From Hyalella azteca (taxonomy: Eukaryota; Arthropoda; Malacostraca; Amphipoda; Hyalellidae): a stretch of 64,000 nucleotides of DNA. Below the pieces are notes generated by a model, which searched no databases, had not been told where the DNA came from, and saw nothing but the letters and a program-made list of their open reading frames with translations. Where the stretch lies: assembly GCF_000764305.2 (NCBI RefSeq), contig NW_025930528.1, forward strand, positions 1 through 64,000, written 5' to 3'. Both the position numbers and the translations under genes were made by a program. Below are positions 775 to 22,398 of the stretch, one piece after another (within the stretch, counting starts at the first letter, position 1; each line of letters starts with the position of its first letter).

Positions 775-3700
775 GTGAGGCAGAGTGAAGCTGAGTGAGG
801 CAGAGTGAAGCTGAGCGATGCTGAGTGAGACAGAGTGAAGCTGAGTGATGGTGAGTGAGGCAGAGTGAAGCTGAGTGATGCTGAGTGAGGCAGAGTGAAG
901 CTGAGTGATGCTGAGTGAGGCAGAGTGAAGCTGAGCGATGCTGAGTGAGGCAGAGTGAAGCTGAGTGATGCTGAGTGAGGCAGAGTGAAGCTGAGTGATG
1001 CTGAGTGAGGCAGAGTGAAGCTGAGCAATGCTGAGTGAGGCAGAGTGAAGCTGAGCGATGCTGAGTGAGGCAGAGTGAAACTGAGCGATGCTGAGTGAGG
1101 CAGAGTGATGATGAGTGATGCAGAATGAGGCAGAGTGAGGCAAAGTGAAACATAGTGAGACAGTGTGAAGCATTGGGAGGTAGACTATGATAAATTATGG
1201 AAATATGAGGCAGTGTGATGCTAACGGAGACAGAGTGAGGCAGAGGGAGGCAAAGTGTCATAAAGTGAAGAAGAATGAAGCAAAGTGAGGCTGAGGGAGA
1301 CAGAATGCATAAGAATGTAACTGATATAGGCTGAATGTGGCAGAATGAGGCTTAGTGAGGCCAATTGAGATGAAATAACCCCTGGTATAATGAGACGTTA
1401 AGCCATCATGCCGGCAATTATTCACCAGTGAGACGTTGAGCTGTGTGCTGTGTCGGAGTTGTGTTTAAACGTGATATTTCTAATTAATTTTAACTGCTAC
1501 TGAAGATGAGTGTGTTAGTGATTATACTGATTGTACGGACATGTATTTCATGTAATCATTCACTTCTCAAGTTTGAACTGTGAATTATTTCCTAATATTT
1601 TTTAATTGTGTAAATTTAGCAGAACGCCATACTAAGCATGTGCAGAGCGTGAAGGAAAAATTGTATTATTATCATTTTAAATTGATCTGCATTTATGTGA
1701 AACTTAATTTATATTAAATCATAGATTTTTTGCAAAAAATGTGTTTTAATTGCTGTATTTTAATTTTCCTACAGCAACCCCATGGCGCTCGCCGAACCCA
1801 AGTAAGTAAATCCCGATTGTAATATATTAAAATCACTACAGAATTAACTTGAGTATATCCCAAACGCACAAATACCAGACATCTCAAGCCCTAATGGTAT
1901 TAAAATAATTTATGTAAATCATGGTTGTCATTTATTTATATCGATACCATAAATCAATTATATTTCAATCACCGAGATAAGACATCTTAAACCCTTATGA
2001 TATCATAATTATTTCTTTAAAAAAAATCCTCCGAGACAAAATGTGGGTTTAAGATCAACTTTTGGACGATCGCCACGATATATTTAATCTTTGCCAATAT
2101 TGAAAATGGTTTGGGAAACACGGCAAACAAAACAGCAGCCCGGGCACAACTCTCATAAGTTTATTGCTAAATTTAAATCAAAATTCATTGAGGATCAGAG
2201 AAGGATAGGCAATATGCCTGATTTATTTGTTGCTTAGTACAGGTCCGGTGGTGAACGGATTATAGAAGCGATTAATAGTAATTATTTAGTATCGATCATG
2301 CACTGTTTATGGGAAATAGAATAAGAATACGGGGGCTATTGTTTAATAATACGGGGGATGTTGTATGTTGTAAATACAACATTTTCGCTAGATTAGATTC
2401 TTATTTCGCGAGGTCTTACCAAATCTCTATATATGTCCTGAACACAACATTTTCGCTAGATTGGAAACAGTTCAATGGGTCTTGACAAACCTCTGGTTCA
2501 TGGAACTTGATTACCTGAACATAGGAAGAAAGTTTCTCGTTTGTTCGTCTTTCTGGAACATTTATTGTAAGTCTAAGCCACAATAGCCCAGGATTACCAG
2601 TGGCAGCAAGATAGGCGCAGCCAAGACGGGGGTTCGAAACCCATTTTAATGTTCCCCTGGATGTCCCTTGGGAGAAGGCATCGAAGTATAGAATATAGGT
2701 GTCCCTATAAGCGTGGCCGTGGGCTGTCGCTATTCAAAACTTTTGGTAATTGACCATTGAAAAGATGTTATTAACTGAGGGTGATCGAGTTTACTAGAAA
2801 AATGTTAGCTTGACTCTACTGATAAGTTATTTGATGCGATTCGTGTGTTACTCGATATAAATAGCATCTTTATCGATATGCCATACAAGACTTTCTACAA
2901 AACTGATATCCTGATGTAACAGTCTAAAGTAATATAGTGAGGATTCATTGTATAACTTTAGCGCTATTAGAAAAATTAAATTATGCTTAGTTGCCGTTTG
3001 CGACTAACTAGACATGGAGAGCAACATAAAAATTTCTCTTTAAATAACTTTAAAATCCCTCTTTCTTAGCCTAATTGCGTTCTATGGCATACAAATGATA
3101 CCACGTCAGTTGCATCTTGATGCTAAGAGATTAATGTTACAGCCACTCGAAGGACATCTCGAGTTCAAACCTACGACAAATGGAGAAATTAATCCTGGAC
3201 AACATCATCGGCCCCGACAACTACGACAAGCGGATTAGGCCCGCTGGCGTCAACGATACTGGTGAGCATAAGTGTGGAAATGACGTGGAAACAACGGTAA
3301 ATAAGCGTTAGGTTATTAAACGAAAGATTTTTGTTGGCCGGGCTGCAAATATGTGCAGCTAATTAATTTTAAAAATATGCGTTACATGTGATTATGAGTT
3401 GGTTTCGTGTAAATAACGTTTAATAGACGTTTTTTAAACGTCAGGAGCCTGATCGACAATTCAATAATTGTAAGTTATTACGTTTTGAAGAATTTGTTGC
3501 AAGATATGAGCTCCTTACATCAGGTGATGTGATGCCTAACATTTAAACTGTTACTGTAAAGTGCCGGGCAAACGCGTTTTCTGGGTTTAGTTCGAGCAGG
3601 ATAAAATTTTAAATCAAAATTCATTAAAATTAGACTGTTTATGATTTTAATTACCAATTATTTTTGCCTTTTACATGTATCTGGTAGCTCGTCATCGGTT

Positions 3701-6700
3701 AACTGACTTTAATGATTTTTTATGCATCATTTCGTCGTTGTATTTTCATGACAGTGTCATTGTATATGACATGACAATGTCATTGCATGACATGACAATG
3801 TCATTGTATTCGACATGACAGTGTCATTGTATATGACATGACAGTGTCATTGTATGACATGACAATGTCATTGTATATGACATGACAGTGTCATTGTATA
3901 TGACATGACAGTGTCATTGTATATGACATGACCTGTCTCTTATACACATCTAGATGTGTATAAGAGACAGTGACATGACAGTGTCATTGCATATGACATG
4001 ACAGTGTCATTGCATGACATGACAATGTCATTGTATATGACATGACAGTGTCATTGTATATGACATGACAGTGTCATTGTATTTGACATGACAGTGTCAT
4101 TGTATATGACATGACAGTGTCATTGTATTTGACATGACAGTGTCATTGTATATGACATGACAGTGTCATTGCATGACATGACAATGTCATTGTATTCGAC
4201 ATGACAGTGTCATTGTATTTGACATGACAGTGTCATTGCATTTGACATGACAGTGTCATTGCATATGACATGACAGTGTCATCGTATATGACATGACAGT
4301 GTCATCGTATATGACATGACAGTGTCATCGTATATGACATGACAGTGTCATTGTATTTGACATGACAGTGTCATTGTACCCCCAGGTCCGACGGAGGTTC
4401 ACATCAACATCATGATCCGCAATGTGCAGACCATTTCTGACGTCAGGATGGTGAGTGTTGCGTCTCTGGAGCATCACTGTTTTTTCGATGAGAATATCTC
4501 GATGATGTCATTTTTTGCGGAATAATTAGTAAACCATTTTAATTGTAAGGTAAATTATAATTTTTATGCGAATATCAGGAAATTTTGTTTCGAATGTACC
4601 ACTTGAATTGCTATTTTTTGAGTTTAAAATACCAGCAATTGCACGAAATTCGCAATCGATGTTTCACGCCTATTGTTTATCTGGAATTTAATTACAAAAT
4701 AATTATGTTGTCTAAGACAATTCACTGTGCAGGAGTACAGCATTCAGATCACCTTCAGGGAGCAGTGGCTGGACTCCAGACTCAAGTTCGACAGCATGGC
4801 GGGTGGGTGTATAATATGAATATAATATATAATTCATCACATCTAACATGAATATTTTACAACACTTCTCTTTAACAACACTTCTTGTTGTTTGTTTGTT
4901 TGCTGCAAATCTTATAATTGATGTTTAACACACTTCAACCTCTCCAATCGATCTGAAATTCTGCACCCTTGCGTAAAATCGGAGACAATGCGTGAACCGA
5001 TTGAAAGAATAAATAATAAAAAAATTAATATTGACATGTGTAACATCGGGGAGACTGACCTACTTATAAGTGTTGTCTTTAAAAAGTTATTTTCAATCGC
5101 ATATTATTACTCATTATTTTATTTGTAATACAATTAACACACTTTTCAAATCACACTCCGCTGGACATTGCGACTACATAGAAATATTTTCTTCATCACT
5201 TACTCATTTCAATGTTCGAAGCGTTGCATACAGTTGATCACAAACTGCAGTTCGCACACAATAAAATTGGACACTTTACCCTAGCATCGATGCACTTCTT
5301 CCCACTGGAAAAAATGGGTCATCCTGACCCATTTTCGCTCAGCAAAGGCGAATAATTGTAATAAGAACACAATTGTGTTCTTATTTGAATAACACAGGAA
5401 CCATTCATTTTTTGTATTGTACCTTTTTCGTATAGTACGTATTGGATATTTCATGTAATTCATCTTATTTTATTGTATCCTTATTTCTGATCAAATCATC
5501 TTTCTCATTGAAATAAACTCTCATTATCCTCATTAACGATAAGTGATGAATGTTATGGAGTGACATGTGTCGTTGTGGCCCGCAGGTCGCATCCAGTACC
5601 TAACTCTGACGGACACAAACATGGTCTGGATGCCCGACTTGTTCTTCAAGAACGAGAAGGACGGACACTTCCATAACATCATCTTGCCTAACCTCTACAT
5701 CAGGATATTCCCCGATGGCGGCGTTCTCTACAGCATCAGGTTAGAGGAATATCTGTTTCACATTATGTTCCATACTATCTTTTTAATATTTTACTTCTCA
5801 TATTATCTGTTTCACATCATCTGTTTCACATAATCTCTTTCACATCATCTGTTGTACATCATCTGTTTCACATCATCTGTTCCACATCATCTTTTTCACA
5901 TCATCTGTTCCACATCATCTTTTTCACATTATCTGTTTCACATCATGTTTCACATAATCTCTTTCACATCATCTGTTGTACATCATCTGTTTCACATCAT
6001 CTGTTCCACATCATCTTTTTCACATTATCTGTTTCACATCAGCTGTTTCACTTCATCTGTTTCACAACATCTCTTTCACTTTCACATCACCTGTTTAACT
6101 GCATCTCTTCCACATCATCTGTTTCACAACATCTGTTTCACATCATCTGTTTTACATCATCTCTTTCACATCATCTCTTTCACATCATCAAAACATTTAT
6201 TTCTTTGTATCAATTCTTCATGCGCATCAATTCTTTACCTATGTCCGTAAATTTTTTGTACCAATTTAGTAAATTTTATTAATATTCAGAACTAATTAGC
6301 TCCGCTGGAATTTTTGATTAAAATTCAATTTAATTTTATTTTGATATAATTTCCTGAGGTTCAAGATGAATATTAAATTCAGAGGTGCTGAATAATTGAC
6401 GATAAATTCACTTGTGCCACCAGGATCTCCCTGACGCTGTCGTGCCCTATGGACCTGAAGCTCTTCCCTCTGGACCGCCAGCAGTGCCAGCTACAGATGG
6501 CATCGTGTGAGTACTGGCACTGTATCTTTATTTTATTCTATTGTATATATTAATACAAAATTATATTGTATATTTGTATACATAATTATATTGTCTATCT
6601 TTATTTTATTAGATTATTTGATTATAGTGATCTGGGGCTGAACGATCAGAAATAGGCACGCGTTTGTAACTTCGCCAGCCAATCACTGACGGTTTTTTCT

Positions 6701-9700
6701 AGTTTAACCCACCAATCACAGACGATAAATCTGTCGCTACACATGTGGCGGATGGTACAGGTCTTGCTATACAATGGAATTAACTCAAGTTCTATGAGTC
6801 GGCGATGGTTTAGAATGGTTTATTTACGCATGACGGACAATGAAGTATTGGCAGGCACATGAATGACTACACACAGACTGAATTAGTATGACATGTGATA
6901 TGGACGCTTGCTAGTGATTGACTGACGGAGATGAGAAGAATGGACTATCGTTACTTACTAACTACAAGTTACGTGACGATCCCGTATGTTACGGTCGGGC
7001 TTACGTTAGTTTCCCCGACAACACATGCTTAGGCCGCTATGTGTGCGATAGGCCGCTACTTGCACTTAAAATATGAACGCTACGTGTAATTGGGAGCCTG
7101 CGCGTTATACTTTATAGTGATAGTACGGCTCAGACGATCAGCTTTTTCACCGACAATGAATACTTTCATACATTGGATCAAGACTCCCTCTAAATAAAGA
7201 AAAATATTCTACTTTCTTTTTTGAGGAATTGTCTGCTATTTTTATGAATTCTTAGGAATTGAATTATCACCAGAAATTTGTAGTCATTTCTCATGTGCCT
7301 CGCGGGGAGGCAAAAAAAAATCGTCGCTGAGCAGCTTTGCCTAAAACGGCAAGGAAATTTGGCCTGAATTGAGTCATCGTGTGCGGGGAAGCTGAGCGTC
7401 ATTTTCCAGTCTGGCGCCGCTAACGATGTTGACTTGCCCAAGACCGCTTCATCCGGGCATATTCTGGCGACATCCTGCACGGGTCTAAACCAAGAGGCTT
7501 TAAGCCTCTTCTTGAAGAGGAGCGAGGTTATTCTTAAAGAGGCGTTAGGCTCTTCTTAAAGAGACGTGAGGCTCATCTTAAAGAGGCGTGAGGCTCTTCT
7601 TAAAAATGCGTGAGGCTCTACTTAAAGAGGTTGGAGGCTTTGCTTAAAAATGCTTGAGGCTCGCTTTAAAGAAGTGCGAGACTCTTCTTAAAGAGAAGCG
7701 AGGCTCTGTTTAAAGAGGTGCGAGGCTCTTCTTAAAGAAGCACGAGGCCCTTTCTAAAGAGGCTTGAGGCACTTCTTAAAGTGGCATGAGGCACTACTTA
7801 CAGAGGCGCGAGTCTCTCTTTAAAGAGGTGCGAGGCCTTCAGTGCCTCATTAGCTGTGTTACCGAGCACCTGCTCTCATTAAATATCTCTGTGCTAAATA
7901 TTATGTTAACATTATTACTTATTTATTTATTATTATCGGCTGAATGTTATTTGGCTCAGCAGAAACTCTGACTAAGCACTGAGTCCTATACAATTTTATA
8001 CAACTACAAGTATTCAATTCGAGTTTGCTAATATTTTTATAAAGTTTCTTCAGCTGCATGTCGCCGCAAATATCGTGCATATATATATTCACCTTCGATT
8101 GGAAGATTTAGCTTGATTTGAATGCATTATTTTACTGTTATCAATGAGTTTTATTGCGTTGTTGAAAAGTTGAAAAGAGTTGAAAAATGTGATCCAACAC
8201 GCTACGAAGACAAACATTAATAATGACCTAAACAACGTCGTTTGGACCATAACCAGCCACTGAAATGCAAGCCATTCCATAAAGCGGCGTCCTCAGGGCT
8301 GGCCGACCGTCGGCCACTGAATGGCCGCCGATGATCCGTACATAATTTCCACGATTATTGACCTGTTAACTGATCAGGAGCTCCCCATTAAAAGACGGAT
8401 CCGTGCCCACGCAATCACCGGGGCTACCCACACCCTCTGCACCTCACGCTACCCAGTGCAGAGTGTACCTCACGCTACCCAGTGCAGATTGTACCTCACG
8501 CTACCCAGTGCAGATTGTACCTCACGCTACCCAGTGCAGATTACCCAGTGCAGATTATACCTCACGCTACCCAGTGCAGATTGTACCTCACGCTACCCAG
8601 TGCAGATTGTACCTCACACTACCCAGTGCAGATTGTACCTCATTCACATTGTACTTTTTCTAATCCAACTCACGACTTCTTGCGTGCGCGGTTAGTACGT
8701 GCTGAGGCCGGGCCAGATTTGAAATAATTCTCGAGTTCGACTGTATCCAGTGTCAATCAGGCGTCTCATTCTATTCATTATAATTATATTCTAATGTTAG
8801 ATAATCTGTTAGTGCGATGTAAGAATCACTGGACGTGGTAGAGTTTGATCGAAAAGTCCTTGACCTGAGTCGGCAGGGAAAACATCACGTGATAAATCAC
8901 GCGATCAAGACTTCAGCAGTGGGCGGAAGTCGTGATTCTATTGAAGGGCTGGTAACCTTAGTAAGGCTCCATCAACTGACATGTACGCCGTCATGTAATT
9001 CGAGTTAGAGCTACTCCAACCTAACGGTTGACGTCTTAGTATTATAGCACTAATATAACTGATGCATTAGTCATTACCACCCCATATCAAGAAAAGTTCT
9101 CTAGACAGATGGTGTCCTACTTATCCCTCACACATTTAGTCAACGAATCCCTGTCCTCAGGTATAAATTTATAATCAGTCAGGTGCATAGTGCTTAATTT
9201 GGCCGCCTGACAACAGAGGAAGTCGTGGGTTTGGATATCACATAGTAAAGCGGAGCCAAATACTCTTGATGTGCACGATTTAAGAAATTTAGCGCTCTCA
9301 ATGTCATCGCAATGATGAATCGGACAATTTGCACCACACACGATCACTGGTTGACATTACCGGCCCGGAGTCATATGCTTTATTTTCATCAGGATATTAC
9401 CGGCATATTTAGCATCTAACCCAAAAGCCAACGGTCGTATTTCGATAATTATGTAATTATTATAAGAGTTCTTATAATTCTAACTGTTTTTTATTTTGAA
9501 CTATGATAGCTTAGTTTTGTTCAAAGTAATTGAAAGTCCTTATATCAAGTTTTGAGTACGCTAAGGTATATTTGTATCGAGTCGCTATTTGCACCAAATG
9601 TCTTCAGAAGCCAAGTTCAAAAATCCTGAGTGCATATTTTATTCTTTAACTTTCGTTTCTTATCGACTTTAACTGTGAAATTTTGCACTTTTCAATTCTT

Positions 9701-12700
9701 TTACATTCCTGCATTCAAAAAAGATCTCATAGCATCAGAAGTATCGCTTAGTCTTGTATTGAAGTTTGTTTTCACAGTATTTCTGTTATTGGCTAAGAAC
9801 GCGCAGCTCATAGTACGTAATTTAGATTGTTTTGGATTTTCAGCGTGAAATACACGTGATTTCGATATTGAAAGTTTATGCTGTCAGTGTTCCAAGACAA
9901 ACTCTAAAAAATAAATTAATTTCGCAGGAATACAAAATTATTTTTAAAAACTCGATTTTTTTTCCGAATTGTTATTGTCCAGACTGCTAGTGGCATGGTT
10001 TGAACCTGTGAATAGTAATACCTGATTAAACTAGGAGGGTTAATTATGATTGAGCCTGGAAGACGTTTACTGAATCATACACATTATTCAAAACTATTAT
10101 ATAATATTATTTGTGAACGGTTCTTCTAAGTGAAGTTATTTGTGAGAATTTTAATGCAAAAATCACAGAATGCGCGCACTCGGAGAATTGTGACGGCCAT
10201 TGTCCAATAAGCGGTTCATTTTTGCCATTGAATGGGTCATCCTGGCCTAGCGGGTGATGATGGAGTTTTTTGGAGTGCAGGTGATGATGGAGGTTTTTAG
10301 AGTGCGGGTGATGATGGAGGTTTTTAGAGTGCGGGTGATGATGGAGTTTTTTAGAGTGCTGGTGATGATGGAGGTTTTTAGAGTGCGGGTGATGAAGGAG
10401 GGCTTTAGAGTGCTGGTGATGATGGAGGTTTTTAGAGTGCAGGTGATGATGGAGGTTTTTAGAGTGCGGGTGATGATGGAGGTTTTTAGAGTGCTGGTGA
10501 TGATGGAGGTTTTTAGAGTGCGGGTGATGATNNNNNNNNNNNNNNNNNNNNNNNNNNNNNNNNNNNNNNNNNNNNNNNNNNNNNNNNNNNNNNNNNNNNN
10601 NNNNNNNNNNNNNNNNNNNNNNNNNNNNNNNNNNNNNNNNNNNNNNNNNNNNNNNNNNNNNNNNNNNNNNNNNNNNNNNNNNNNNNNNNNNNNNNNNNNN
10701 NNNNNNNNNNNNNNNNNNNNNNNNNNNNNNNNNNNNNNNNNNNNNNNNNNNNNNNNNNNNNNNNNNNNNNNNNNNNNNNNNNNNNNNNNNNNNNNNNNNN
10801 NNNNNNNNNNNNNNNNNNNNNNNNNNNNNNNNNNNNNNNNNNNNNNNNNNNNNNNNNNNNNNNNNNNNNNNNNNNNNNNNNNNNNNNNNNNNNNNNNNNN
10901 NNNNNNNNNNNNNNNNNNNNNNNNNNNNNNNNNNNNNNNNNNNNNNNNNNNNNNNNNNNNNNNNNNNNNNNNNNNNNNNNNNNNNNNNNNNNNNNNNNNN
11001 NNNNNNNNNNNNNNNNNNNNNNNNNNNCCCATACTCACTTCCCTCTCACCCATACTCACTTCCCTCTCACCCATACTCACTTCCCTCTCACCCATACTCA
11101 CTTCCCTCTCACCCATACTCACCTCCCTCTCACCCATACTCACTTCCCTCTCACCCATACTCACTTCCCTCTCACCCATACTCACTTCGTACATCACCGA
11201 CCGCTGTAACAGCAGTAGTCGTGTAACACTCAATTCTCTTGTGAATTAGAATTTTCTGTTTTTTTCATCATATTTTGGCATTTTTTGTTGTTGTTGAATT
11301 TAACTCCTCCAAGGAACGTGTTTGAATAGAAATACCTACATGATGTAGTGTCAATATAATGGCATCCCTACACTGTCACTCTGTCCGCCGTGATGGTGAC
11401 AGCCCAACACTGCATAACTCACTATACAGACATAAAAAAATTCATGATAACCTTAACTATATGATGTAGTATAGTATAGTTACCATCCAAATAAAAAACA
11501 TACCCGTTTCTTATTGTACATTCATTTTATTTCATTTTAAGGTTTAGCCCTTCATTTTAAAAGCATTTCCATATGCTCTTGCTCACATATAAATCACGAA
11601 TACTTATTGATGCGTCGAGTATGAAAAACAGTGTGGCTATTGAATGAGTGTGTTGATACGTTATTAGTGTCCTAGCATATGACTACAGTGATCGCGTGAA
11701 AGTTGTGTTCTTTTGACTTGATGGGAGAGCTTTAATAAATTTCTGCCCTCTTCAATTCGCTCTAATAGTGAACATGACGTTGCAAACAATTTAAATACAA
11801 AGTTGAAATTCGTGCCCTGTAAATTTTAAGAGATTGCCTCTAACAAATTCTGCAGGATTAATTCATCCGTAATCCCCGCCATTATCACAAGGGAAAAGGA
11901 AAAGTTACCCTTATTAAGAATTTATAGACAAATTAATTTCTAAATATGTGTGGAAAATAGATAATAAGATCGGAGGACAAATCCCAGGCTGGATTCTCAA
12001 AAAATAGTTCCGTAACCGTAAATTTTCTGCTGATCACAATCTTTCTGCTTCTAATATTCAATTATTGTTGAATTTTTGAAAGTAAATACTGATCGGCTGT
12101 TGATTTCGAGTTACGGTCTACTTTTTGGGAATCTTCCTGGATGAGTACACCGTATCTGCGAGCGCGTCTGGTGAGTATGTCTCGATGTGTAGATGTTTGC
12201 TGGTATTTTGATGTCGCGATTAGTAATACGCTTCTTGGAACAATATTTTATGATTTATTATGCTGAATTATCCTGATTCATTATTCATCACCAGTTAAAA
12301 ACTGTGAAGGATTTTATTTTTAGTCACTTGATCCGTCTTCACCCGAAATGTGCTTGTCACTGGTATCTTCAACTAAACTCGTTTTCATAATTGTCCTTTA
12401 AGTAATCAAGTCGTTATTATTTAAATTGCACTTGATTCCTCATAATCATCAAAATTTCCCTTTAAATTCCTGAGAATTTGGAGAAAATTAAATGCATGCA
12501 CAAACAAAATATCAAATTCATTGTAGTTTTTGAAGTTACAAGAAGCGTCTTACAAATAAATTATCAAGTCGTGTGCTTTAGTCGCTTTTAATTTAAATTT
12601 TCTTTTAAGGTGGTCCTTAAGGTGGTTTAAAAGACGACTAATGGGCGGCCATTAAAAATGTCATTCATGTCAAGTATTGAGCGCCAAGAAATTTTGGTTT

Positions 12701-15700
12701 TTACTTTCAGGTCGAATTCTTAGTGATATTTGACGAACTACGCGGGAATTTGAGTCATTTTTAATTTCTTTTAGACACAAATGAATAATTTTTTGATCGC
12801 ATCGTGCTTACATTTGAATAATTAAAACCTGTCTTTATTGAAAGAAACTGATCAAAACCTTTTGTTATTAAATGGAAATGATCAAAATCCGTCATTAGCT
12901 TGGAATGAAAAGTTACACCAAATTCAATAAAATAGCTCGGCAAGGATGAGTTGAATATCATATTATTTTAATTTCTCCTTATTCATTTCATACAACAAAG
13001 TGGGGTATCCAAATTTTGGGACCACCTAGGTTGCGGCTGAATAGTCGCTACATTAGGCGCAAAGTTATTCTTAGTCTGCTTGGACACCCGATCAAAATCA
13101 GTTTCTGGCCACAATCTTTTTCCAGCTTTATAGTCGCCTGAGAGTATGACAAGGGTTGGCCGAGCCGAGTCATTCCGAGCTTGCAAGCTGCCCAGAGGCT
13201 GTCATTCAAACCCTGAGCAGAAGCGGATATATAGAAGCTGATTTACGTGCTCCCCGAATCCTAGGGGGCACGAATTTCAGAGTCGGGCATGTATCATAAT
13301 TTTGTTAGGGTTTCTGCCTCGCTACGCTCTAAGAGTGTATATGAAAAATAGCACCTGCAGCAGCCAGGATGTAATTTTGTCAACAAATGTAAAAACTCGG
13401 AGGAGAATTTTATAAGTTATTTCGTTTTTGAAGAACGTTACATTTTCTATGCTGTCTTTGTGAGAAATCACTCAATACAGCAACACAACTTGAAATTATT
13501 CAACTATCACTGTTATTTAACTTTTTTTTAAAGTCTCTAGAAAAGCACCTAAAATATTTATTTCAAAATATAATTAGTAATTTTTGGCCAATCATCTTCC
13601 TTTGCGACTAATCGCGATAGACGACGTTCTATTAAATTTAGCGACGATGTACATTACGTGAAAAGCTTGAGCTTTCGATGGATTCTGTGTGCTTTGATGT
13701 TGCATGAATGTAAACTGCGTGTGCATGCCGCTTATGTTTAACTATATTAGTGATTTAATTGTCGCAGGTGAGTACAGTTGTCTGCGCGTGGACTTTATCT
13801 TCAAGCGGGAGTTCTCTTACTACTTGGTGCAGTTCTACGTGCCCTGCTGCATGCTCGTCATCGTATCTTGGGTCAGTTTCTGGTTGGACCCGAATGCTGT
13901 TCCGGCGAGAGTGGCACTTGGGGTAACAACGCTACTAAATATGTCTACACATGCTTCCAGTATCAACCAGTCTCTCCCTCCTGTTTCCTACACTAAGGTA
14001 TCTTGATAACTGGCATGGTCTTCTTTGCCCGGTTAACGAAACGTTCCGTTCAATCACACAGGTACCTACAGCTGCCTTCAGGTTGACTTGGTGTTCAAGA
14101 GAGAATTCTCGTTCTACTTGATCCAATACTACGTACCATGCTGCATGCTGGTGGTGGTTTCGTGGGTCAGCTTCTGGCTTGATGCCCAATCCGTACCGGC
14201 ACGCGTGTCGCTGGGCGTCACAACTCTGCTCACCATGTCAACTCAGACCTCCAGTATTAACCAGTCGTTGCCACCTGTCTCCTACACTAAGGTACATCTC
14301 TTTCAAAAGAACCACTTAAAGACAATGACCAGCTCTTTATGGCCGTACAGGTTCGTACAGTTGTCTGAGGGTCGACTTCGTTTTCAAGCGGGAGTTCTCA
14401 TACTACCTCATCCAGTACTACATCCCCTGCTGCATGCTCGTCATCGTTTCTTGGGTCAGCTTCTGGTTGGATGCCAAGAGCGTGCCGGCGCGTGTATCGC
14501 TCGGAGTCACCACTCTGCTCACCATGTCGACACAGACGTCAAGCATTAACAATACGCTGCCACCTGTGTCCTATACAAAGGTTAATGGCTGTCGGTGTTG
14601 CTGTGCCACACAGCTCAACTTAATGGCCTTGCATGTTGTCGGCGTCGCGGTGTCTTGAGCAATGCAAAATACCACACACAAACACACAAGAACACACAAA
14701 TGCACCAGCACCCACACTCATCGACAACAGCAATACCAGTACATGCCATATTGAATGTACTGAAGCAGTATTGAAACAGTGTTACTTGTGCGCCTTCAGT
14801 ATCCAGCGGTGAAGTCAGTATCCGCGATCATCTTTGGCATCCTAGAGAATTAAGCTCACTCTCATGTCACCATACAGTTTAGCATCAATTAAAAAGTTAA
14901 TAAATTTTCATCAATTGTTCCATATAAATTGAACTTTATACATCTATTTTTTAGTTTCAATTATCACTAATTTCTCGTCCTGTCACTCGTTTGACCATTC
15001 ATACGTCGCGAAATTCATTTTTAAATGTACATTTGTCATGCTATGCCTCCTGAAGCACGATTAAGTAGAAAATTTCTGGTGCACCTTTTGGTGCCGTCTC
15101 CATTGAAAGACATTAACAAATCCATGCAAAAATCTGCGAACTTTTTGTAAAGTATTCCCTAAAATTGTGTAAGAAATATACATGAATTTTATGACGAATA
15201 TATTGCATGATATAACCTTCCTGTAGATGTAGACGGACCTTTAAAATTCAATTGGCATAACGAATTCACACGAATATTTTTTGATAAAATAACTCCATAG
15301 TTGTCTTCCAATTTCAGAATGATTGATTTTATTCCATATTTGTCAACAAACAAGTGATAAGAAGCCAGTTTGAGTTTCCGAAAAATTGAAAACTAAAACA
15401 GGAAATAATTTCTGTGAATCAATACCAAATTTAATACATAAATCTCGATTGAAACAAAATTCAATGAAGCCTAGTAAAATACATTCGCTTATCAACTTAC
15501 ATTTTACTGTAGAGTAAAATTAATTCAAAATCCGACCAATGAACTGCCAACAAAAGTCGTTCTGGTATCACTGTTACAATGACTGCAGCTTCCCTCCCTC
15601 GCCAACCCTGCATCTTCTCATCTGCACCCACGAAAATAAATGGCTTTATTGTCCAAATAGTGAAACACTTTCTCACTCAACGCACGAGTACGTTACCTCA

Positions 15701-18700
15701 CTCACTTAACGCACGAGTACTGATACTCCTTTTCGTCGGGTCAAACTTGTGTTATGACCAACATAAGCGCATAAAAAGTGCTTCGTTATTTGGACAACTT
15801 CTCCCACAATTCTCCGTGCGTGCTCCTCTCGATGTTACTCTACCCCTCTTTGCGGGGTATCTTAATCTTAAATTCTTCCTTGACGAATTTAAATTTATTT
15901 CCCTTTAAATTTATTCCCCTACATACCCTTTAACTAAGAGTGTCAACTAAACTGCATAACTAATTCATAACTAAATGGGAATGTACATTTTAGCACTATG
16001 AGTGTACAACAAATTAGCACACTATGAGTGTACAAATTAGAACACTAAGTGTAGGGAGGGAGTTAGCGTCAGTTTAACATATTTCGCAACCGTCTAAAAT
16101 TTTCAGCCATCTCTAGTGCACGGGAAGAATAAAATTTTTTAGGCATTGCTAATTTTTTTGTTCTGTTTAATGGATCATTATTTCAAATTATGTGTGATTA
16201 TTTGTTTAAATCCTGTAGGTTCTATTTTATAGCGATTCAATAATATTTCCAAACTTTCATTTATTACAGTTACCCTTAGATTTCCTTTTTACGAGCTAAA
16301 ATCAAGATCAATGTAGTACTTTAATTTCTCCTACATACAGTGGACTTTACTACGTGTCTAAAGTTTATTGCGGTCATTGTGAGCCTTAAACGTAGAACAA
16401 CAATGACGATCACCAGACAAATTGCATGGGTCTAAAATCGTTAGAATATCAGCCCGAAGTCGACAAAATATCACTTCAACATGAGCGGAATATCGGCACA
16501 CCATGCTCATAGTTTTGGCCCTACATTATTAGAATATCAATCCAATATCGGCGAATTATCGGCCCAAAATTGGCAAAATATAGGCTAAAACGGTAGAATG
16601 TTGGTCAAAGCTCAACTAAATATAGCTGCCCAAATCGACAGAATATCGGCACTCAATCTACCCAATATTATCGAAAAAATGTCTCCCCTTTCACTGAGTT
16701 TACCCAATGATAGAACTTTTGCGTTGTCCATGCCTGAAAAAATTACGAATTCAACTTCGACAACTTAAAAGATTTTCATTAAGAAATAAAATTCTTGAAC
16801 GATACAGAAATTTAGCTACACACATTTTAGGCAAACAACACTGCAAACCTTTACTAAACACTCGAAGTTTACGATTACTAACCATGTTAACCGAATTCCT
16901 TAGCTCTTCTTTCCGTCTTTTCTCCATTTTCACGTCTTGCTTTAATCCAAATGTTGTATTCCATTGTTGAGAAATCCCAATTGAAACGATCTACTGGAAC
17001 AAATAGTGAACTACACGCTAGAGTCATTAATATTGAAGAGTACGAAACCAATTATTGAACCAATTATTAAGTACGCAAATAATTTGACTATCATTTTAAT
17101 CATACTAATTTTTCAATCATATATAACATACTTATTTCGCACCCATCATCCCAAACACGAACTCTCCCTACAACGACCCCCCCGGCATTTGTTGTACGCT
17201 TTTTTGTTCGCATTCGTATCCGTTGTCGATGTATTAATTTAGACTTGTTTCTAGATTTAAGATCGCATTTATCTAAGTTAAACTGCATGGTCCTCATTTG
17301 TTTTTAAATGATTGTGCTTTGTCCCATGATTAAAAACTTTTTTAAATTTAGAGTTTAATCTTTAGTTACATAAACTATCATCTCTTATGTCTTCTAGGGT
17401 TAATAATGTTCTAATAATAAAGTTGTTTATTTTTGATGAGTTTCCCATGGAAATAATTTATTGATATTCACTTTGTTTCCTTGTGCTCAGTGCAGGCTCA
17501 TACATCTCCTCTGTTGTCTATGTTTGTACTCCGGGAGTGAATAAGTCACGTTGCCCAGTAAAATCTCTTTTACTGCACCTAGCTCTGGTACGCAGTTTTG
17601 ACGGCCTAATTGGATTAGGATGAGCCTAATAAGGCCTAAAAACTAAATTGCAATTTGGACCAACTTTTACCTAGTAATCTGAATGCATGGCGGTCCGTCA
17701 ATTCAACTTTCATTGGCTGATTTTGCAATTAATTAATCTTCTACAATGTTTTTCTTTATTGTATTAACCCATAAAAAACTGCAAATTTTAGAAACGAAAA
17801 AATAAATTTAAAAACGAATTGAAACTTATTAAGTCGTAACGAACTGAACATTCGCAACATTTTACGAATGTAAAGTAACACAAATTTACGATTTCCTACC
17901 ATATATATTTCATCGAACTCTTACAAATTCCTTGCTTCAGCTCCATGAGAATGCCTAATAATTTTGCTAAATTTGTGAAAATCCATTCGATGCTGTCAAA
18001 CATTTTTTTTTTTTGATAACTAAGCATCTTCCTGTAGCTTTCACACATCTTTCTGAGGCGATTTAACATTTAATTTGGTATTTATGCAAACATCGTTTTA
18101 CGCTCACATTTTTTCCTAACCTAATCAAACGCTAGTTTTTCATAAGAATTTGAAGGAATAATTTTATGTATTCAATCATGTTCATATCATGCCAAACGTA
18201 TTCCTGAGAACCCCGAAAATCATATTCTTCATATTGATATCATTCATGTGAAGTGAAATATGGTTGGGCTAACCGTACATGGTCACGAACTAGTCGTTCT
18301 GTCATACTACAACCAGGGTTGACTGAACCAGTCATTTTGCCATGCCACAACCAGGGTTGACTGAACTAGTTGTTTTGCCATATCACAACCAGGGTTAACT
18401 GAACTAGTTGTTTTGCCATTCCACAACCAGGGATGACTGAACTAGTTGTTTTGCCATATCACAACCAGGGTTGACTGAACTAGTTGTTTTGCCATATCAC
18501 AACCAGGGTTGACTGAACTAGTTGTTTTGCCATTCCACAACCAGGGATGACTGAACTAGTTGTTTTGCCATATCACAACCAGGGTTGACTGAACTAGTTG
18601 TTTTGCCATATCACAACCAGGGTTGACTGAACTAGTTTATTTGCCATGCCACAACCAGGGCTGACTGAACTAGTCGTTTTCATATGCCACAACCAGGGCT

Positions 18701-21700
18701 GACTGAACTAGTCGTTTTTCCATGCCACAACCAGGGCTGACTGAACTGGTCGTTTTGCCATGCCACAACCAGGGCTGACTGAACTAATCGTTTTGCCATA
18801 CCACAACTAGGGCTGACTGAACTGGTCGTTTTGACATACCACAACCAGGGCTGACTGAACTAATCGTTTTGCCATACCACAACCAGGGCTGACTGAACTA
18901 ATCGTTTTGCCATACCACAACCAGGGCTGACTGAACTAGTCGTTTTGCTATACCCCGGCCAAAGCACACGACCTGTGCAGACTGAAAAGGAAGACCTCAA
19001 CAGTATTGCTTTTACATTCTTTCTGTTTGCACTAATTATATTCAATGCAGCAACGCTCTTTGTATTTAATCTCTTACAAAAACAACGGGGATATTATTTG
19101 TAGCGTCCGTACATTGAAGCCCGACTAAATGCGACGCCTGTGGGCAGCGGGTTTACGGTAAGGCATTTTACCAGTACAGTCAGAAAATTCATGCGTCATT
19201 TGTTCAAATAGCGACGCACTTTTTATCCACAACCCAAGCAGAAAGCGAATTTACTTATGCAGCGTTCGGGATGACCCACACAAGGGCAAAAAAATGCATC
19301 GCTATTTGAATAAAGTCACACTAATTTATCTGAGTGAACTTTCTACTCAGCCGTTACTCCCCTCACACAACACAATGAGTTATTGTAAGTCTAACGACCG
19401 CGAGTATTTCCAGACTCGCTTCTTTCTTGGAAGGCGAGAACACCGGCAGTAATGTATTTCTGAGCAGGTGTGTCCTTTCCCACGCCGGCGAAGGGGTACA
19501 AATGTCTTATATTCTGTCTTTTCATATCCTTAATTTACACTTTCTCTCCTGTCTAATATAATATATTTAAAGTATATTATACATCCTGTCTTACATTCTC
19601 TCCAGTCTAATATAATTTATTTGAAATATTATATACATCCTTTTTTACACTCTCTCCAGTCTAATATAATACATATAAAATACTTTATACATCCTGTTTT
19701 ACACTCTCTCCTGTCTAATAAAATATATTAAAAATATATTATACTTCCTGTTGTACACTCTCTCATGTCTAATAAAATATATATAAAATATATTATACAT
19801 CCTGTCTTACACTCTCTCCTGTCTAATAGAATATATTTAAAATATATAAAATATCTTGTCTTACACTCTCTTCTGTCTAATATAATATATTTAAAATAAT
19901 TGCTAACATTCCAGCAATCATCGACCAGCTCAAGATGTTGTAGAGCTGCAGGCAGCCTACCAGCCTGCGAACAGATGATTTACATTACCACTTTTAGAGG
20001 AACCTTCGCTTGAAATTTAACAGTTCAATATCTGGATGAGGTATAGGATTTTTGGTTAATCTTTGATAAGATTGCAAATCTAGTATTTTAGATAAAGGGT
20101 CTGCAAGCGCAAACTTACTTCAAACGTCTTTTCATTTTGTTAAAAAGTTTTCCGGCTGGATAAGATAGGCTGAGACGTCAAGCAAGAGATTAGTTGCCTG
20201 CTTCCAACAATTCAACCTTAACTTGCACTCTAACTCTAGTAATGATATCATCATCTTATCATATCAAGCTTCCGTCAAGCGTAATACGCCCAAGTTATGT
20301 TGCATAGCAATGAAGTTACCGCCCGAGCTGCCATATTAACTTACTAAGAACTGATCGACACGATGTGCGAATATTTGTTCAGTTGAAGGGAAATCGTTTC
20401 ATTTCTTGAGTGAAAGTTTAGCCTTATTTCTTCTTTTTTCAACTAGTGGGAGTTTACCTTTTTTGTTTAACGAGTGGGAGTGTTGCTTTTTCTCTCTTTT
20501 TTTTTCTACCAGTGGGAGTTTAGATTTACTTTTTTTTCAACGAGTGAAATTTTTGCTTTCTTTGCTTAATTTTTTACCGAGTGGGAGTTTTACTTTTTTC
20601 TGTCTTCCAACGAGTGGAAGCTTAATTTTATTTTTTGTTCAACGATCGCCAAAACCATGTTTTTAAAGCCCCAATGCTCAGCGTTCAAATAACCCTGTTA
20701 ATTTTGTTTGCCGAACTGAAGAACTGTATCTCGCCCTGCGCGCTAGATAGGGTCACGATTCGCATGCGTAAACACCGCTAGCAGTAAGAAATATCTGCTA
20801 GAGCTACATCCCCAGAAATCTTCCGGCGTTCGGAGCAGAATTCAGGAATAAAAAAATTTTTAATAACAAAAAATTTCCTAGTTGAGATTGAATGAACTAA
20901 ACGAAAAATATCTACTTTGATGGTTAAAATTCTCTACTTTTTTACTAGCTGAAAAGAGTTTTTCTTAGATTTTTATCGTCAGGAAAATTTTTCTCTTGAA
21001 CGATCGTTGACGCTTACAATTCCTCACGTTAAACAATGAGATTTTGTACCGAAGACTTTGAGCGTATTTTTGTGCACAAATGTGCAGTGTACAAATCCTT
21101 TTGTACAGTGTATTTTGTACACAATTTGAATGAATTTATTTAGACAAATCTCAACTCAAGTCGAGTGACTGGCTTTGTGTGCAGGCCATCGACGTATGGA
21201 CGGGCGTGTGTTTGACGTTTGTGTTTGGTGCTCTGCTTGAGTTTGCCCTCGTCAACTACGCGTCGCGGTCCGACAAACACAGAGAGAAACTCAAGGATAA
21301 GATCAAGGAGTGGGAAGTGGAGCATCAGGCCGTGCTCCAGGCCCAGATGGAGCAAGCGGAGCACGGCAACCCTGGCGACCCACACTCCGGCTTTGCCATG
21401 GTGAGGAGGAACTTTGGTTTTTTATTATTTAATAGTTGAATTAATAAGGATCATTTGTATCCTTTTATATAATAGCTTAATTAAATAACCTTATATTGCT
21501 TTAATATAGGATTTCACTTAAGTTCATCAGCCATCTTTAATATGATAGCGTAATTGGAGCCCTTTCTAGCACGTTTTCTCATTTATGGAAAAAAGGCGCT
21601 ATTGTGCTCGTCATGTCCGTCCGTCCGTCCGTGACCACGTTTTCGTAGACGAGAAAAGGCGCTCTCTGTCACTCACTGCAGTGAGTACTGAGTTACATTT

Positions 21701-22398
21701 TTGCTGTAAAAGCTTATTTAGGTCCCTTGTGGGCTTGTGGCTTCAAAGTCCTTAATGAATCAGAGAGCTTGCAGACTCAAAAGGTTGGTGCGCTTAGAGG
21801 GGTGGAGTGGTCTGAGGACTCAGAGAGCTTTAGGACCCAAATGGCTTGATATCATAATCAGCACTGTGAACATCAATCGGGTATCATATTCACTCTTTTA
21901 TACAATCGGGCATCCAATCTGTGCTCTGTTATGTAAAGCACAGTGCAATTTTTAACCGTATTCTAGGCGTCAAAATTACATTCTGGTCAGAAAAACCTCA
22001 AAAAATTGTCTGTTCTGAATAAGAAATGAAACCAACACGACATTTTCAAAAAGATTGTTTCTCAACTACCGAACGCTTATCACTTTTTATAATCTCCTAG
22101 TCTCCGAACATTTTAATAACTTAAACGTCCCCCCTACCCGGTCCCATAGAAGCCCCTGGTGTCCCGCCACAACGGGGCCATGGGTCCCACCGGCGACAAG
22201 ACCCAGCCCTGCCAGGTGCACCTGACGCAGACCCGCAAGGAGTGCTGCCACAGCTGGCTCGCCAAGTTCCCAACCCGCAGCAAGCGTATCGACGTCATCT
22301 CCCGCATCATCTTCCCGATGGTCTTTGCCTTCTTCAACCTGGCTTATTGGAGTACTTATCTCTTCACAGAGGAGGAGGAGATTCCTAAACAGCAGTAA
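722..22398 (+). CDS. GluCl: Glutamate-gated chloride channel subunit (GluCl), whole gene
   Basis: Pentameric Cys-loop chloride channel of nerve and muscle membranes, opened by glutamate and the target of ivermectin. Exons seen: 722-774, 1775-1801, 3143-3261, 4386-4450, 4733-4802, 5586-5739, 6424-6506, one of three alternatives (13768-13997, 14062-14291 or 14351-14580), 21185-21400, 22150-22398. All junctions are GT...AG and all phases agree, except that one exon after 6506 is not visible. The seen parts give about 422 residues; the missing exon should add about 44, giving about 466, close to the fly protein (about 456). Visible hallmarks: signal peptide, Arg in IMIR and TFREQW (glutamate-site arginines), the 13-residue Cys-loop, TM1, TM2 with PAR at the cytoplasmic end, TM3 and TM4. 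The TM3 glycine in WTGVC, linked to avermectin sensitivity, is present. Identification rests on remembered family sequence and is very safe. Confidence 0.97.
776..1140. repeat. 30-bp minisatellite starting at the GluCl exon 1 donor
   Basis: About eleven copies of a gtgaggcagagtgaagctga-type unit, starting at the splice donor itself. Each unit carries a GTGAGG like that donor. The unit length explains three long spurious minus-strand frames. Confidence 0.9.
1775..1801 (+). CDS. GluCl: GluCl exon 2: 27-nt microexon
   Basis: Acceptor ttttcctacag and donor gtaagt are both strong. Reads through as [10 protein letters not shown]. The ALA motif is a good signal-peptidase site, so this tiny exon probably holds the cleavage point (after ALA, before EPN). 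Phase 2 at both ends. Confidence 0.85.
3143..3261 (+). CDS. GluCl: GluCl exon 3: N-terminal helix of the extracellular domain
   Basis: Reads [20 protein letters not shown] then [20 protein letters not shown]. The YDKRIRP segment matches the family's conserved YDxRIRP near the start of the ligand-binding domain. NDT is an N-glycosylation sequon. Acceptor gttacag, donor gtgagc, phase 2 to 1. Confidence 0.93.
3743..4380. repeat. 23-bp palindromic minisatellite in GluCl intron 3
   Basis: About 27 copies of a unit like tgacatgacagtgtcattgt. The core TGACA-g-TGTCA is an inverted repeat, so each unit can fold. The array runs to within a few bases of the exon 4 acceptor and is broken at 3933-3970 by adapter sequence. 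Confidence 0.92.
3933..3970. other. Tn5/Nextera mosaic-end adapter dimer (artefact)
   Basis: CTGTCTCTTATACACATCT (3933-3951) followed at once by its perfect reverse complement. This 19-nt sequence is the Tn5 mosaic end used in Nextera libraries. It sits inside a tandem repeat and is almost surely an assembly contaminant. Confidence 0.95.
4386..4450 (+). CDS. GluCl: GluCl exon 4: first beta strands, glutamate-site Arg
   Basis: Reads [22 protein letters not shown]. The Arg of IMIR lies 19 residues before the Arg of TFREQW in the next exon, the same spacing as R37 and R56 of C. elegans GluCl-alpha, both of which bind glutamate. This corresponds to the fly exon 3, which has alternative copies in fly; I see only one here. 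The acceptor (ccccag) directly abuts a 23-bp minisatellite, so it has almost no polypyrimidine tract. Confidence 0.95.
4733..4802 (+). CDS. GluCl: GluCl exon 5: TFREQW segment
   Basis: Reads [20 protein letters not shown] then SMA-G. TFREQW is a signature of glutamate-gated chloride channels and carries a glutamate-binding Thr and Arg. Acceptor ctgtgcag, donor gtgggt, phase 0 to 1. Confidence 0.96.
5586..5739 (+). CDS. GluCl: GluCl exon 6: central extracellular domain
   Basis: Fifty codons containing [20 protein letters not shown] and [17 protein letters not shown], diagnostic for this family (fly: WMPDLFFSNEKEGHFHNI). Acceptor cccgcag; donor gttaga is canonical GT but weak. The intron becomes a TTTCACATCATCTG-type repeat array right after the donor. 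Confidence 0.97.
5745..6190. repeat. ~15-17-bp pyrimidine-rich array in GluCl intron 6
   Basis: Many imperfect copies of tgtttcacatcatc. It begins just after the exon 6 donor. The 132-residue frame across it is spurious. Confidence 0.88.
6424..6506 (+). CDS. GluCl: GluCl exon 7: Cys-loop
   Basis: Reads [21 protein letters not shown] then CQLQMAS. Two cysteines spaced by 13 residues form the signature Cys-loop with the conserved FPLD. Ends with one base (T) before donor gtgagt, so the next exon should start with AC or AT to complete a Tyr codon, as in the family's SYGWT. No such exon is visible downstream. Confidence 0.97.
6661..6795. repeat. Dispersed repeat, copy 1
   Basis: Shares order and wording with 54681-54800: gccaatc-ctga-gg, then cgccaatca/ccaatcacaga, then gcta-tacaa. 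Diverged but collinear over about 120 bp. Confidence 0.55.
7487..7830. repeat. 22-bp array (aggctcttcttaaagaggcg)
   Basis: About 15 imperfect copies. No coding meaning seen. Confidence 0.88.
8449..8640. repeat. 26-bp array (gtacctcacgctacccagtg)
   Basis: About seven near-identical copies, one shortened. Three overlapping plus-strand frames across it are spurious. Confidence 0.9.
10250..10531. repeat. 27-bp array running into the first gap
   Basis: About ten copies of gtgatgatggaggtttttag-agtgcgg up to the N run at 10532. Confidence 0.9.
10532..11027. other. Assembly gap (496 N)
   Basis: Unlike tandem arrays lie on the two sides, so at least two array ends and possibly unique DNA are missing. 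The unseen GluCl exon after the Cys-loop could be here. Confidence 0.99.
11028..11188. repeat. 21-bp array (cccatactcacttccctctca)
   Basis: About eight almost perfect copies on the right side of the first gap. Confidence 0.92.
13768..13997 (+). CDS. GluCl: GluCl exon 9a: TM1-TM2, alternative copy 1 (2' Ala)
   Basis: Starts with GT (completing Gly), then [22 protein letters not shown]1 with [17 protein letters not shown]2 [18 protein letters not shown], and ends SYTK before donor gtatct. Length 230 nt, phase 1 to 0. It differs from copies b and c in the pore: 2' is Ala instead of Ser, 10' Asn instead of Thr, 14' His instead of Gln and 15' Ala instead of Thr. No stops or frameshifts, so it looks functional. 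Confidence 0.93.
14062..14291 (+). CDS. GluCl: GluCl exon 9b: TM1-TM2, alternative copy 2 (2' Ser)
   Basis: Same length (230 nt) and phases as 9a. Reads [23 protein letters not shown]1, then TM2 [18 protein letters not shown], ending SYTK before donor gtacat. Closer to copy c than to a (about 8 differences in 76 residues from c, by eye). Lies 64 nt after 9a. Confidence 0.94.
14351..14580 (+). CDS. GluCl: GluCl exon 9c: TM1-TM2, alternative copy 3 (2' Ser)
   Basis: 230 nt, phase 1 to 0. Reads [23 protein letters not shown]1 with the family's [17 protein letters not shown]2 [18 protein letters not shown], then [12 protein letters not shown] before the weak donor gttaat. Nearest of the three to the remembered fly sequence in TM1. 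Lies 59 nt after 9b. Confidence 0.94.
18290..18955. repeat. 38-bp array in GluCl intron
   Basis: About 17 copies of a unit with ctgaactagttgttttgcca followed by cacaaccagggttga. Left and right halves differ by fixed variants (ggttga or ggctga). Confidence 0.92.
19203..19310. mobile_element. Small foldback element (MITE-like)
   Basis: Ends are inverted copies: TTCAAATAGCGACGCACTTT on the left and, reversed, TTCAAATAGCGATGCATTTT on the right. 108 bp, no coding capacity. A similar AAATAGC inverted pair is at 59962-59997, so this may be a family. Target duplication not clear. Confidence 0.55.
19530..19890. repeat. ~52-bp AT-rich array
   Basis: About seven imperfect copies of cactctctcctgtctaatat followed by AT-rich DNA and tacatcctgtctta. 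Confidence 0.85.
21185..21400 (+). CDS. GluCl: GluCl exon 10: TM3 and start of intracellular loop
   Basis: Reads [20 protein letters not shown] then [10 protein letters not shown], the family's TM3. The Gly of WTGVC corresponds to the TM3 glycine that favours avermectin binding (mutated in resistant spider mites), and it is in a constitutive exon. The rest, up to SGFAM, is a charged loop rich in Lys, Glu and Gln that may be helical. Phase 0 to 0, 72 codons, acceptor tgtgcag, donor gtgagg. Confidence 0.97.
21567..21702. repeat. Dispersed repeat with gtccgtccgtccgt core, copy 1
   Basis: Matches 60173-60316 in the same orientation: tagcac-ttttctcattt-tgg, the tgtccgtccgtcc core, and gctctctgtcactcactgca. 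Clearly one repeat family; the class is unknown. Confidence 0.75.
22150..22398 (+). CDS. GluCl: GluCl exon 11: intracellular loop end, TM4 and stop
   Basis: Begins [11 protein letters not shown], matching the fly MKPLVRH junction, then [20 protein letters not shown] and TM4 [20 protein letters not shown], ending [11 protein letters not shown] and TAA. Acceptor cccatag. The coding DNA is much more GC-rich than the flanking intron. An AATAAA lies 33 nt after the stop (22431). Confidence 0.97.
   Translation, partial: KPLVSRHNGAMGPTGDKTQPCQVHLTQTRKECCHSWLAKFPTRSKRIDVISRIIFPMVFAFFNLAYWSTYLFTEEEEIPKQQ

What the first reader, a model, noticed from the sequence alone, without database searches (positions are those of the whole stretch)
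13768..14580. Three tandem, intact copies of the GluCl TM1-TM2 exon
Three exons of exactly 230 nt, with the same phases and all open, encode alternative versions of the loop C end, TM1 and pore-lining TM2 of one glutamate-gated chloride channel. In fly GluCl, the known alternative exons are in the extracellular start and the intracellular loop; the closest parallel known to me is the triplicate exon 8 of insect nicotinic alpha6. I do not know of a described GluCl with a choice of three whole pore exons. One gene could thus make three channels with different pores.
Basis: partly seen in the sequence, partly recalled or inferred. Interest (0 to 1): 0.9.

Follow-up and report, generated by a model that had tools for sequence, protein, structure and literature searches.

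The report
Three alternative pore exons in GluCl
One gene for a glutamate-gated chloride channel in a freshwater amphipod carries three intact, interchangeable versions of the exon that builds the channel's pore, and crabs and crayfish show a two-version form of the same arrangement, so splicing probably decides which pore, and perhaps which drug sensitivity, the channel gets.

Summary
Observation confirmed. Exons A (13768-13997), B (14062-14291) and C (14351-14580) are each 230 nt, open, in the same phase, with AG/GT splice sites, in one GluCl gene (3143-22398). They share 62-68 of 77 residues and their silent sites are near saturation, so they are neither haplotypes nor an assembly echo. The genome is almost surely Hyalella azteca (matching contig length and peptide). 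Its other two GluCl genes have one copy each. Only inclusion of exactly one copy keeps the frame, and the 64- and 59-nt introns between copies are shorter than all 80 other introns estimated: this fits mutually exclusive splicing. No RNA data were available.

Decapods show the same choice with two copies: Portunus and Procambarus isoforms differ essentially here, one type with Ala at pore position 2', the other with Ser. Hyalella A has Ala, B and C Ser, the two states of the Rdl dieldrin-resistance site. B and C share the TM2 core, so two pore classes, not three, are predicted. I saw no description for an arthropod GluCl in ten paper searches. New variant of a known kind; orthology with decapod exons favoured, not proven.

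The parts
13768..13997 (+). Alternative exon A: loop C end, TM1, TM2, start of TM2-TM3 loop; Ala at 2', Asn at 10', His at 14', Ala at 15'
14062..14291 (+). Alternative exon B: same segment; Ser at 2', Thr at 10' and 15'
14351..14580 (+). Alternative exon C: same segment; Ser at 2', Thr at 10' and 15'; nearest to the decapod downstream exon (72 of 77)
13998..14061 (+). 64-nt intron between A and B
14292..14350 (+). 59-nt intron between B and C
3143..3261 (+). GluCl exon, start of the extracellular domain (first exon found; signal peptide exon not identified)
4386..4450 (+). GluCl exon, extracellular domain (the position of insect exon 3; one copy found)
4733..4802 (+). GluCl exon, extracellular domain
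5586..5739 (+). GluCl exon, extracellular domain
6424..6506 (+). GluCl exon, Cys-loop
10532..11027 (.). Run of N; probable place of the missing loop-C exon, which was found neither between 6508 and 13767 nor anywhere on this contig
   Evidence: place inferred
21185..21400 (+). GluCl exon, TM3 and start of the intracellular loop, shared by all three versions
22150..22398 (+). GluCl last coding exon, end of the loop and TM4, with stop

Best explanation
A, B and C are mutually exclusive alternative exons of one Hyalella azteca GluCl gene; each productive transcript takes exactly one, joined from the upstream loop-C exon and on to 21185. Shown: one gene, three intact interchangeable cassettes, frame kept only with exactly one, purifying selection on all three, and an equivalent swap in annotated decapod isoforms. 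Inferred: exclusivity comes mainly from introns of 64 and 59 nt that are too short for A-B or B-C splicing, while A-C joins shift the frame and are lost. Inferred: A makes a pore with Ala at 2' (the picrotoxin- and cyclodiene-sensitive state of Rdl) and without a hydroxyl at 15', an ivermectin contact in C. elegans GluCl; B and C make 2'-Ser pores with the same TM2 core and differ from each other in TM1, the TM1-TM2 linker and the outer mouth.
For: Structure and phase. Old and selected: pS 0.66-0.78 against pN 0.09-0.13. Each single copy gives the full downstream frame, while none, AB, AC, BC and ABC stop early. Inter-copy introns of 64 and 59 nt against a minimum near 97 and a median near 425 in 80 estimated introns. 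The only tandem case among the three GluCl loci of the genome. Portunus X2/X3 differ at 6 sites in this exon and 1 outside; Procambarus X2/X3 at 10 in it plus one 18-residue indel. Both exon types seen in 5 of 11 decapod species. The three donors score 0.53-2.31, below the other six (2.38-5.99) on a nominal scale. Residues at 2' and 15' read against PMC4569296, PMC4019635 and PMC12960926 (passages).
Against: No RNA evidence for any copy in this species. The loop-C exon that must precede A is missing from the assembly. Donor scores of A and B are only just below the weakest constitutive donors (2.38, 2.43), and the acceptors look alike. Intron estimates are rough and would miss tiny open in-frame introns. 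Another alternative-exon array in this genome (myosin, C3480) has spacings of 320-1030 nt, so exclusivity does not need short introns. PMC12960926 questions the weight of Ser260 for ivermectin. The pharmacological prediction rests on analogy.
Confidence: 0.82

Rival explanations
1. Only one or two copies are used. The rest, A (odd residues at 10', 14' and 15') or B, is not spliced into stable mRNA.
For: No transcript data here. A and B lie on long branches in the exon tree (0.18 and 0.16). C has the weakest donor (0.53).
Against: All three open, with splice sites and low replacement against near-saturated silent change. Both types appear as annotated isoforms in decapods.
Confidence: 0.13
2. 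Same mechanism, but the copies arose separately inside the amphipod line and resemble the decapod pair by convergence.
For: The AU test does not reject A, B and C as one clade (p 0.123), and A with the decapod upstream type is not a clade in the best tree (AU p 0.094); support for B and C with the downstream type is only 72/89. A matches the upstream type at 4 of 6 separating columns, B is mixed.
Against: C is nearer to the crab downstream exon (72 of 77) than to A (63) or B (68) of its own gene, and matches it at 6 of 6 separating columns; A is nearer to the crab upstream exon (67) than to B (62) or C (63); the order Ala first, Ser last is the same.
Confidence: 0.25
3. Assembly artefact: copies misjoined or alleles laid side by side.
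For: The assembly has N runs and a leftover Nextera junction adapter in this gene.
Against: Copies share only 72-78% of bases; they lie in 813 bases without N; decapod gene models carry two copies in a row.
Confidence: 0.01
4. Two or more copies enter one protein, giving a subunit with extra membrane segments, as some predicted decapod proteins suggest (P0001, P0016, P0121, P0122).
For: Four crustacean gene models hold two copies in one protein.
Against: In the window every such combination shifts the frame. In P0121 and P0016 the second copy follows a read-through of a 46- or 58-nt gap, and in P0001 and P0122 it starts inside the exon: typical prediction errors.
Confidence: 0.02

Closest known systems
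Decapod GluCl isoforms in NCBI annotation (Portunus, Procambarus, Homarus and others)
   Same: Nearest full-length relatives found (best BLAST identities 67-74%), same exon exchanged, Ala-2' copy before Ser-2' copy in the three models that hold both.
   Different: Two copies seen, three here; copy B has no clear decapod counterpart. Annotated, but not described in the papers I found.
Nematode avr-14 (gbr-2) GluCl subunits
   Same: One GluCl gene, common ligand-binding domain, alternative channel domains (PMC4095040, passages); in the nematode models the swap begins at the same GEYSC point.
   Different: The nematode swap takes the rest of the protein (TM1-TM4); here one internal exon, with TM3 and TM4 shared.
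Nematode unc-49 GABA receptor
   Same: Three alternative channel parts on a common N-terminal domain (PMC6920096, passages).
   Different: GABA receptor; whole 3' exon blocks; not tandem copies of one exon.
Insect nAChR alpha6 exon 8
   Same: Three alternative exons that change TM2 in a Cys-loop receptor gene (PMC2064938, passages).
   Different: Cation channel; other exon and other family branch.
Insect GluCl exon 3 (a, b, c)
   Same: Alternative exons of a GluCl gene, three in Tribolium (PMC2064938, passages).
   Different: Extracellular, near loop D; does not touch the pore.

Membership tests
Glutamate-gated chloride channel gene (GluCl) | Sequence relation to known GluCl over extracellular and membrane parts, PAR motif before TM2 | tested here: met
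   Best hits are crustacean GluCl models, 67-74% identical; C. elegans GluCl alpha is the best PDB match of the exon C-TM3 piece; PAR present in A, B and C
Glutamate-gated chloride channel gene (GluCl) | Opened by glutamate, passes chloride | not testable with these tools
   needs expression
Mutually exclusive tandem exons | Homologous neighbouring exons of equal phase, each able to replace the other | tested here: met
Mutually exclusive tandem exons | Double inclusion or skipping breaks the frame | tested here: met
   5 of 5 other combinations stop early
Mutually exclusive tandem exons | Transcripts hold exactly one copy | not testable with these tools
   no RNA data for this species; decapod isoform models fit
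Mutually exclusive tandem exons by steric exclusion | Intervening introns too short to be spliced | tested here: inconclusive
   64 and 59 nt against a smallest estimate near 97 in 80; splicing itself not tested
avr-14 type swap of the whole channel part | Each alternative brings its own TM3, TM4 and 3' end | tested here: not met
   One TM3 exon and one TM4 exon in the window
Decapod two-exon GluCl choice (orthology) | A and C descend from the decapod upstream and downstream exons | tested here: inconclusive
   6/6 and 4/6 separating columns, tree 72/89, AU p 0.123 for the opposite view

The most novel reading that the evidence does not exclude
A splicing switch of drug sensitivity, old in malacostracan crustaceans: one GluCl gene keeps a sensitive-type (2'-Ala) and a resistant-type (2'-Ser) pore side by side as exons, the two states that insects exchange by mutation in Rdl, and cells set their response to picrotoxin, cyclodienes, phenylpyrazoles and avermectins, and perhaps conductance, by exon choice. 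A much less likely twist: copy A opens with GTGAGT directly behind its AG, a strong 5' splice site, so A could be removed by a second (recursive) splicing step that then joins B or C.
Probability: 0.35. Interest if true: 0.82.

Novelty: new variant of a known kind. Interest (0 to 1): 0.63.

Why it matters
Crustacean inhibition is a classic subject of neurobiology, and a two-species decapod transcriptome paper counts one GluCl transcript per species (PMC5096308). A pore exon chosen by splicing would mean that this count hides channels with different blockers and perhaps kinetics. The choice falls on 2', the site of the best-known insecticide-resistance change, so it bears on how crustaceans, Hyalella being a sediment-toxicity test animal (recalled), respond to fipronil-like and avermectin compounds. 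It is also a natural experiment on pore residues: same binding domain, same TM3-TM4, different TM1-TM2.

Tried and rejected
Set aside: assembly echo (copies too diverged); a second GluCl gene downstream, suggested by a weak loop-C-like hit at 40908, which is chance, as its frame is full of stops; further copies elsewhere in the genome (one each on C3980 and C4571, the rest at most 60% identical; one search found no neighbours in the stretches held around them). A third exon type in other species: in the 283 proteins held, four crustacean GluCl models show two tandem copies and none three; these are only the best 120 of each of three searches, only part of the candidates was scored, and clustering at 90% identity can hide isoforms. 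RNA families: none at gathering score in the window. Not done: base-pairing elements in the introns (one genome gives no covariation); structure prediction. The recursive-splice idea rests on one hexamer that the codons GGT-GAG-TAC would give anyway; the C4571 paralogue begins GTGAAT and C3980 GCTCAT, so it is not kept among paralogues.

Limits of counts: one search used 34 of 223 proteins then held, chosen by me; the exon types are read from the same residues that define them; the second copies of P0001 and P0122 lack the first 13 residues. One search named 34 proteins; P0181 did not fit the pattern and fell out, ten sequences identical to others were dropped, and P0122, P0162 and several paralogues were not entered. 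The intron control took 57 of 61 chaperonin matches and 89 of 90 myosin matches and kept neighbours whose profile gap was at most 25 or 15 positions.

Full report
What is there. On the + strand lies one GluCl gene: exons 3143-3261, 4386-4450, 4733-4802, 5586-5739 and 6424-6506, then three tandem 230-nt exons A, B and C (13768-13997, 14062-14291, 14351-14580), then 21185-21400 and 22150-22398 with the stop. The loop-C exon that should precede A was not found between 6508 and 13767. A genome-wide search with a decapod version gives four matches, two on C3980, one on C4571 and one on C286, none on this contig. The N run 10532-11027 is its likely place (inference).

The three copies are real and old. 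All are open, begin behind AG with two bases that finish a split codon, and end at AAG before GT. Identities are 62 (A-B), 63 (A-C) and 68 (B-C) of 77 residues; silent sites differ at 66-78%, replacement sites at 9-13%. That is purifying selection on all three over a long time; alleles or assembly echoes would be nearly identical.

Which animal. The genome held has 519 Mb in 4890 contigs. Protein P0156, named Hyalella azteca, comes from a contig of 964,873 bases, the length of contig C3980 here, and its exon peptide equals that of C3980. I take the window to be Hyalella azteca.

Controls inside the genome. Exon C as query gives five matches at 82-100% identity: A, B and C, and one each on C3980 and C4571; the other 38 are at most 60%. 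Tandem copies are thus peculiar to this GluCl gene. The myosin gene on C3480 shows another apparent array of alternative exons: five matches to one stretch of the profile, 320 to 1030 bases apart.

Why one copy per transcript. Each single copy gives the full downstream frame of 232 codons with the stop last; none, AB, AC, BC and ABC all stop early. The introns between copies are 64 and 59 nt. From profile matches to chaperonin and myosin genes I estimated 80 other introns: smallest about 97, median about 425, none at or under 64. The estimates are rough, and a tiny open in-frame intron would be missed. The other introns measured in this gene are 282 to 6604 nt. A likely branch point in A-B (TTAAC) would lie about 39 nt from the donor; in B-C only one match, 11 nt from the end, was found. 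Read-through models imply gaps of 46 nt in Petrolisthes and 58 nt in an Oratosquilla paralogue; such models arise only where the gap is open and in frame, so they are a biased sample. Steric exclusion plus loss of frameshifted joins is my inference. The donors of A, B and C (2.09, 2.31, 0.53) score below the six others (2.38-5.99) on a nominal scale, A and B only just.

Decapods have it too. In 34 proteins that I picked, 11 decapod species show a gene of this kind. Eight show a version with a VALIF-like start, Ala at 2' and INQS; eight show Ser at 2' with INNT or INST, most of them with a visible VDLVF start; five species show both. Portunus X2 and X3 differ at 6 sites in the exon and 1 outside; Procambarus X2 and X3 at 10 inside plus an 18-residue indel in the TM3-TM4 loop. 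Gene models of Homarus, Petrolisthes and Chionoecetes carry both copies in the order Ala, then Ser. [quoted passage not shown] the Cancer borealis protein held is of the 2'-Ala type, though I did not check that it is the same record. A lobster transcriptome table lists 18 GLUCL entries (PMC4715275, passages), whose nature I could not see. An Oratosquilla paralogue carries two copies, both with 2'-Ala.

Counterparts. C agrees with the crab downstream exon at 72 of 77 residues and at 6 of the 6 columns that separate the two crab types. A agrees best with the upstream type (67, against 65) but at 4 of 6 columns. B is mixed: 3 downstream, 2 upstream, 1 neither. Several of these states are also those of insects, so not all are informative. 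The tree puts B and C with the downstream type at 72/89. Against: the AU test does not reject A, B and C as one clade (p 0.123), nor does it reject C with the downstream type without B (p 0.478); A with the upstream type is not in the best tree (p 0.094). I favour a duplication older than the amphipod-decapod split, with B added later, at about three to one.

What the choice changes. Placed on C. elegans GluCl (3rhw), the copies differ at the counterparts of 218, 220 and 222 in TM1 and of 247 (2'), 255 (10'), 259 (14') and 260 (15') in TM2. A has Ala at 2'; B and C have Ser. Alanine to serine at 2' is the Rdl dieldrin-resistance change, and the site is implicated in picrotoxin and ivermectin action (PMC4569296, passages; PMC4019635, passages). 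Ser260 hydrogen-bonds ivermectin in C. elegans (PMC4019635); a 2026 paper doubts its weight and finds no such bond to the mosquito Thr there (PMC12960926, passages). Decapod 2'-Ala exons carry Thr or, in Homarus and Procambarus, Arg at 15'. B and C are identical from 0' to 19' of TM2 and differ at 20' and 21'. So I predict two pore classes, A against B/C.

Known relatives. nAChR alpha6 exon 8 and GluCl exon 3 are alternative exons of insect Cys-loop genes (PMC2064938, passages). Nearest in kind are nematode avr-14, two GluCl subunits with a common binding domain and different channel-forming domains (PMC4095040, passages; the title of Laughton et al. 1997 seen in its reference list only), and unc-49, three (PMC6920096, passages). 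In the nematode gene models the swap begins at the same GEYSC point. The window differs in exchanging one internal exon, sharing TM3 and TM4, and in tandem copies. A sea-louse GluCl paper has no mention of splicing or exons (PMC10038264, term search). In ten searches of an open-licence library I saw no description of a pore-exon choice in an arthropod GluCl; I saw listings, not every paper, and most subscription journals are missing.

Verdict. Use in RNA and pharmacology remain untested.

Noticed in passing
window 3933-3970: A complete Nextera junction adapter (sequence recalled) sits inside a tandem repeat in an intron of the GluCl gene: a library remnant left in the assembly.
   Followed up: partly
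window 13768: Exon A begins GTGAGT straight behind its AG, the form of a recursive splice site; on a nominal scale this is stronger than the exon's own donor GTATCT.
   Followed up: partly
L043 (G000:C3980:754448-754686, minus strand): The loop-C exon of another GluCl gene has a partial tandem copy just upstream (first about 20 codons and the acceptor), nearly identical, so recent or an assembly product.
   Followed up: partly
G000:C3480:70706-73952 (minus strand): Five matches to the same stretch of the myosin head profile in a row, apparently an array of alternative exons as known from insect muscle myosin (recalled).
   Followed up: no
P0123-P0142 and other nematode proteins: Most carry two channel domains in one predicted protein, each starting at GEYSC: avr-14 alternatives fused by gene prediction.
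   Followed up: partly
P0224 (ostracod Darwinula), P0144 (sea spider Nymphon), P0143, P0146 and P0148 (ticks), P0227 (Diaphorina): Predicted channels with two or three membrane domains in one protein; neighbouring genes fused, or avr-14-like swaps. P0224 has two complete TM1-TM3 stretches.
   Followed up: partly
P0013/P0014 and P0002/P0010: Decapod isoforms also differ by an 18- or 26-residue stretch in the TM3-TM4 loop, a second, independent alternative exon.
   Followed up: no
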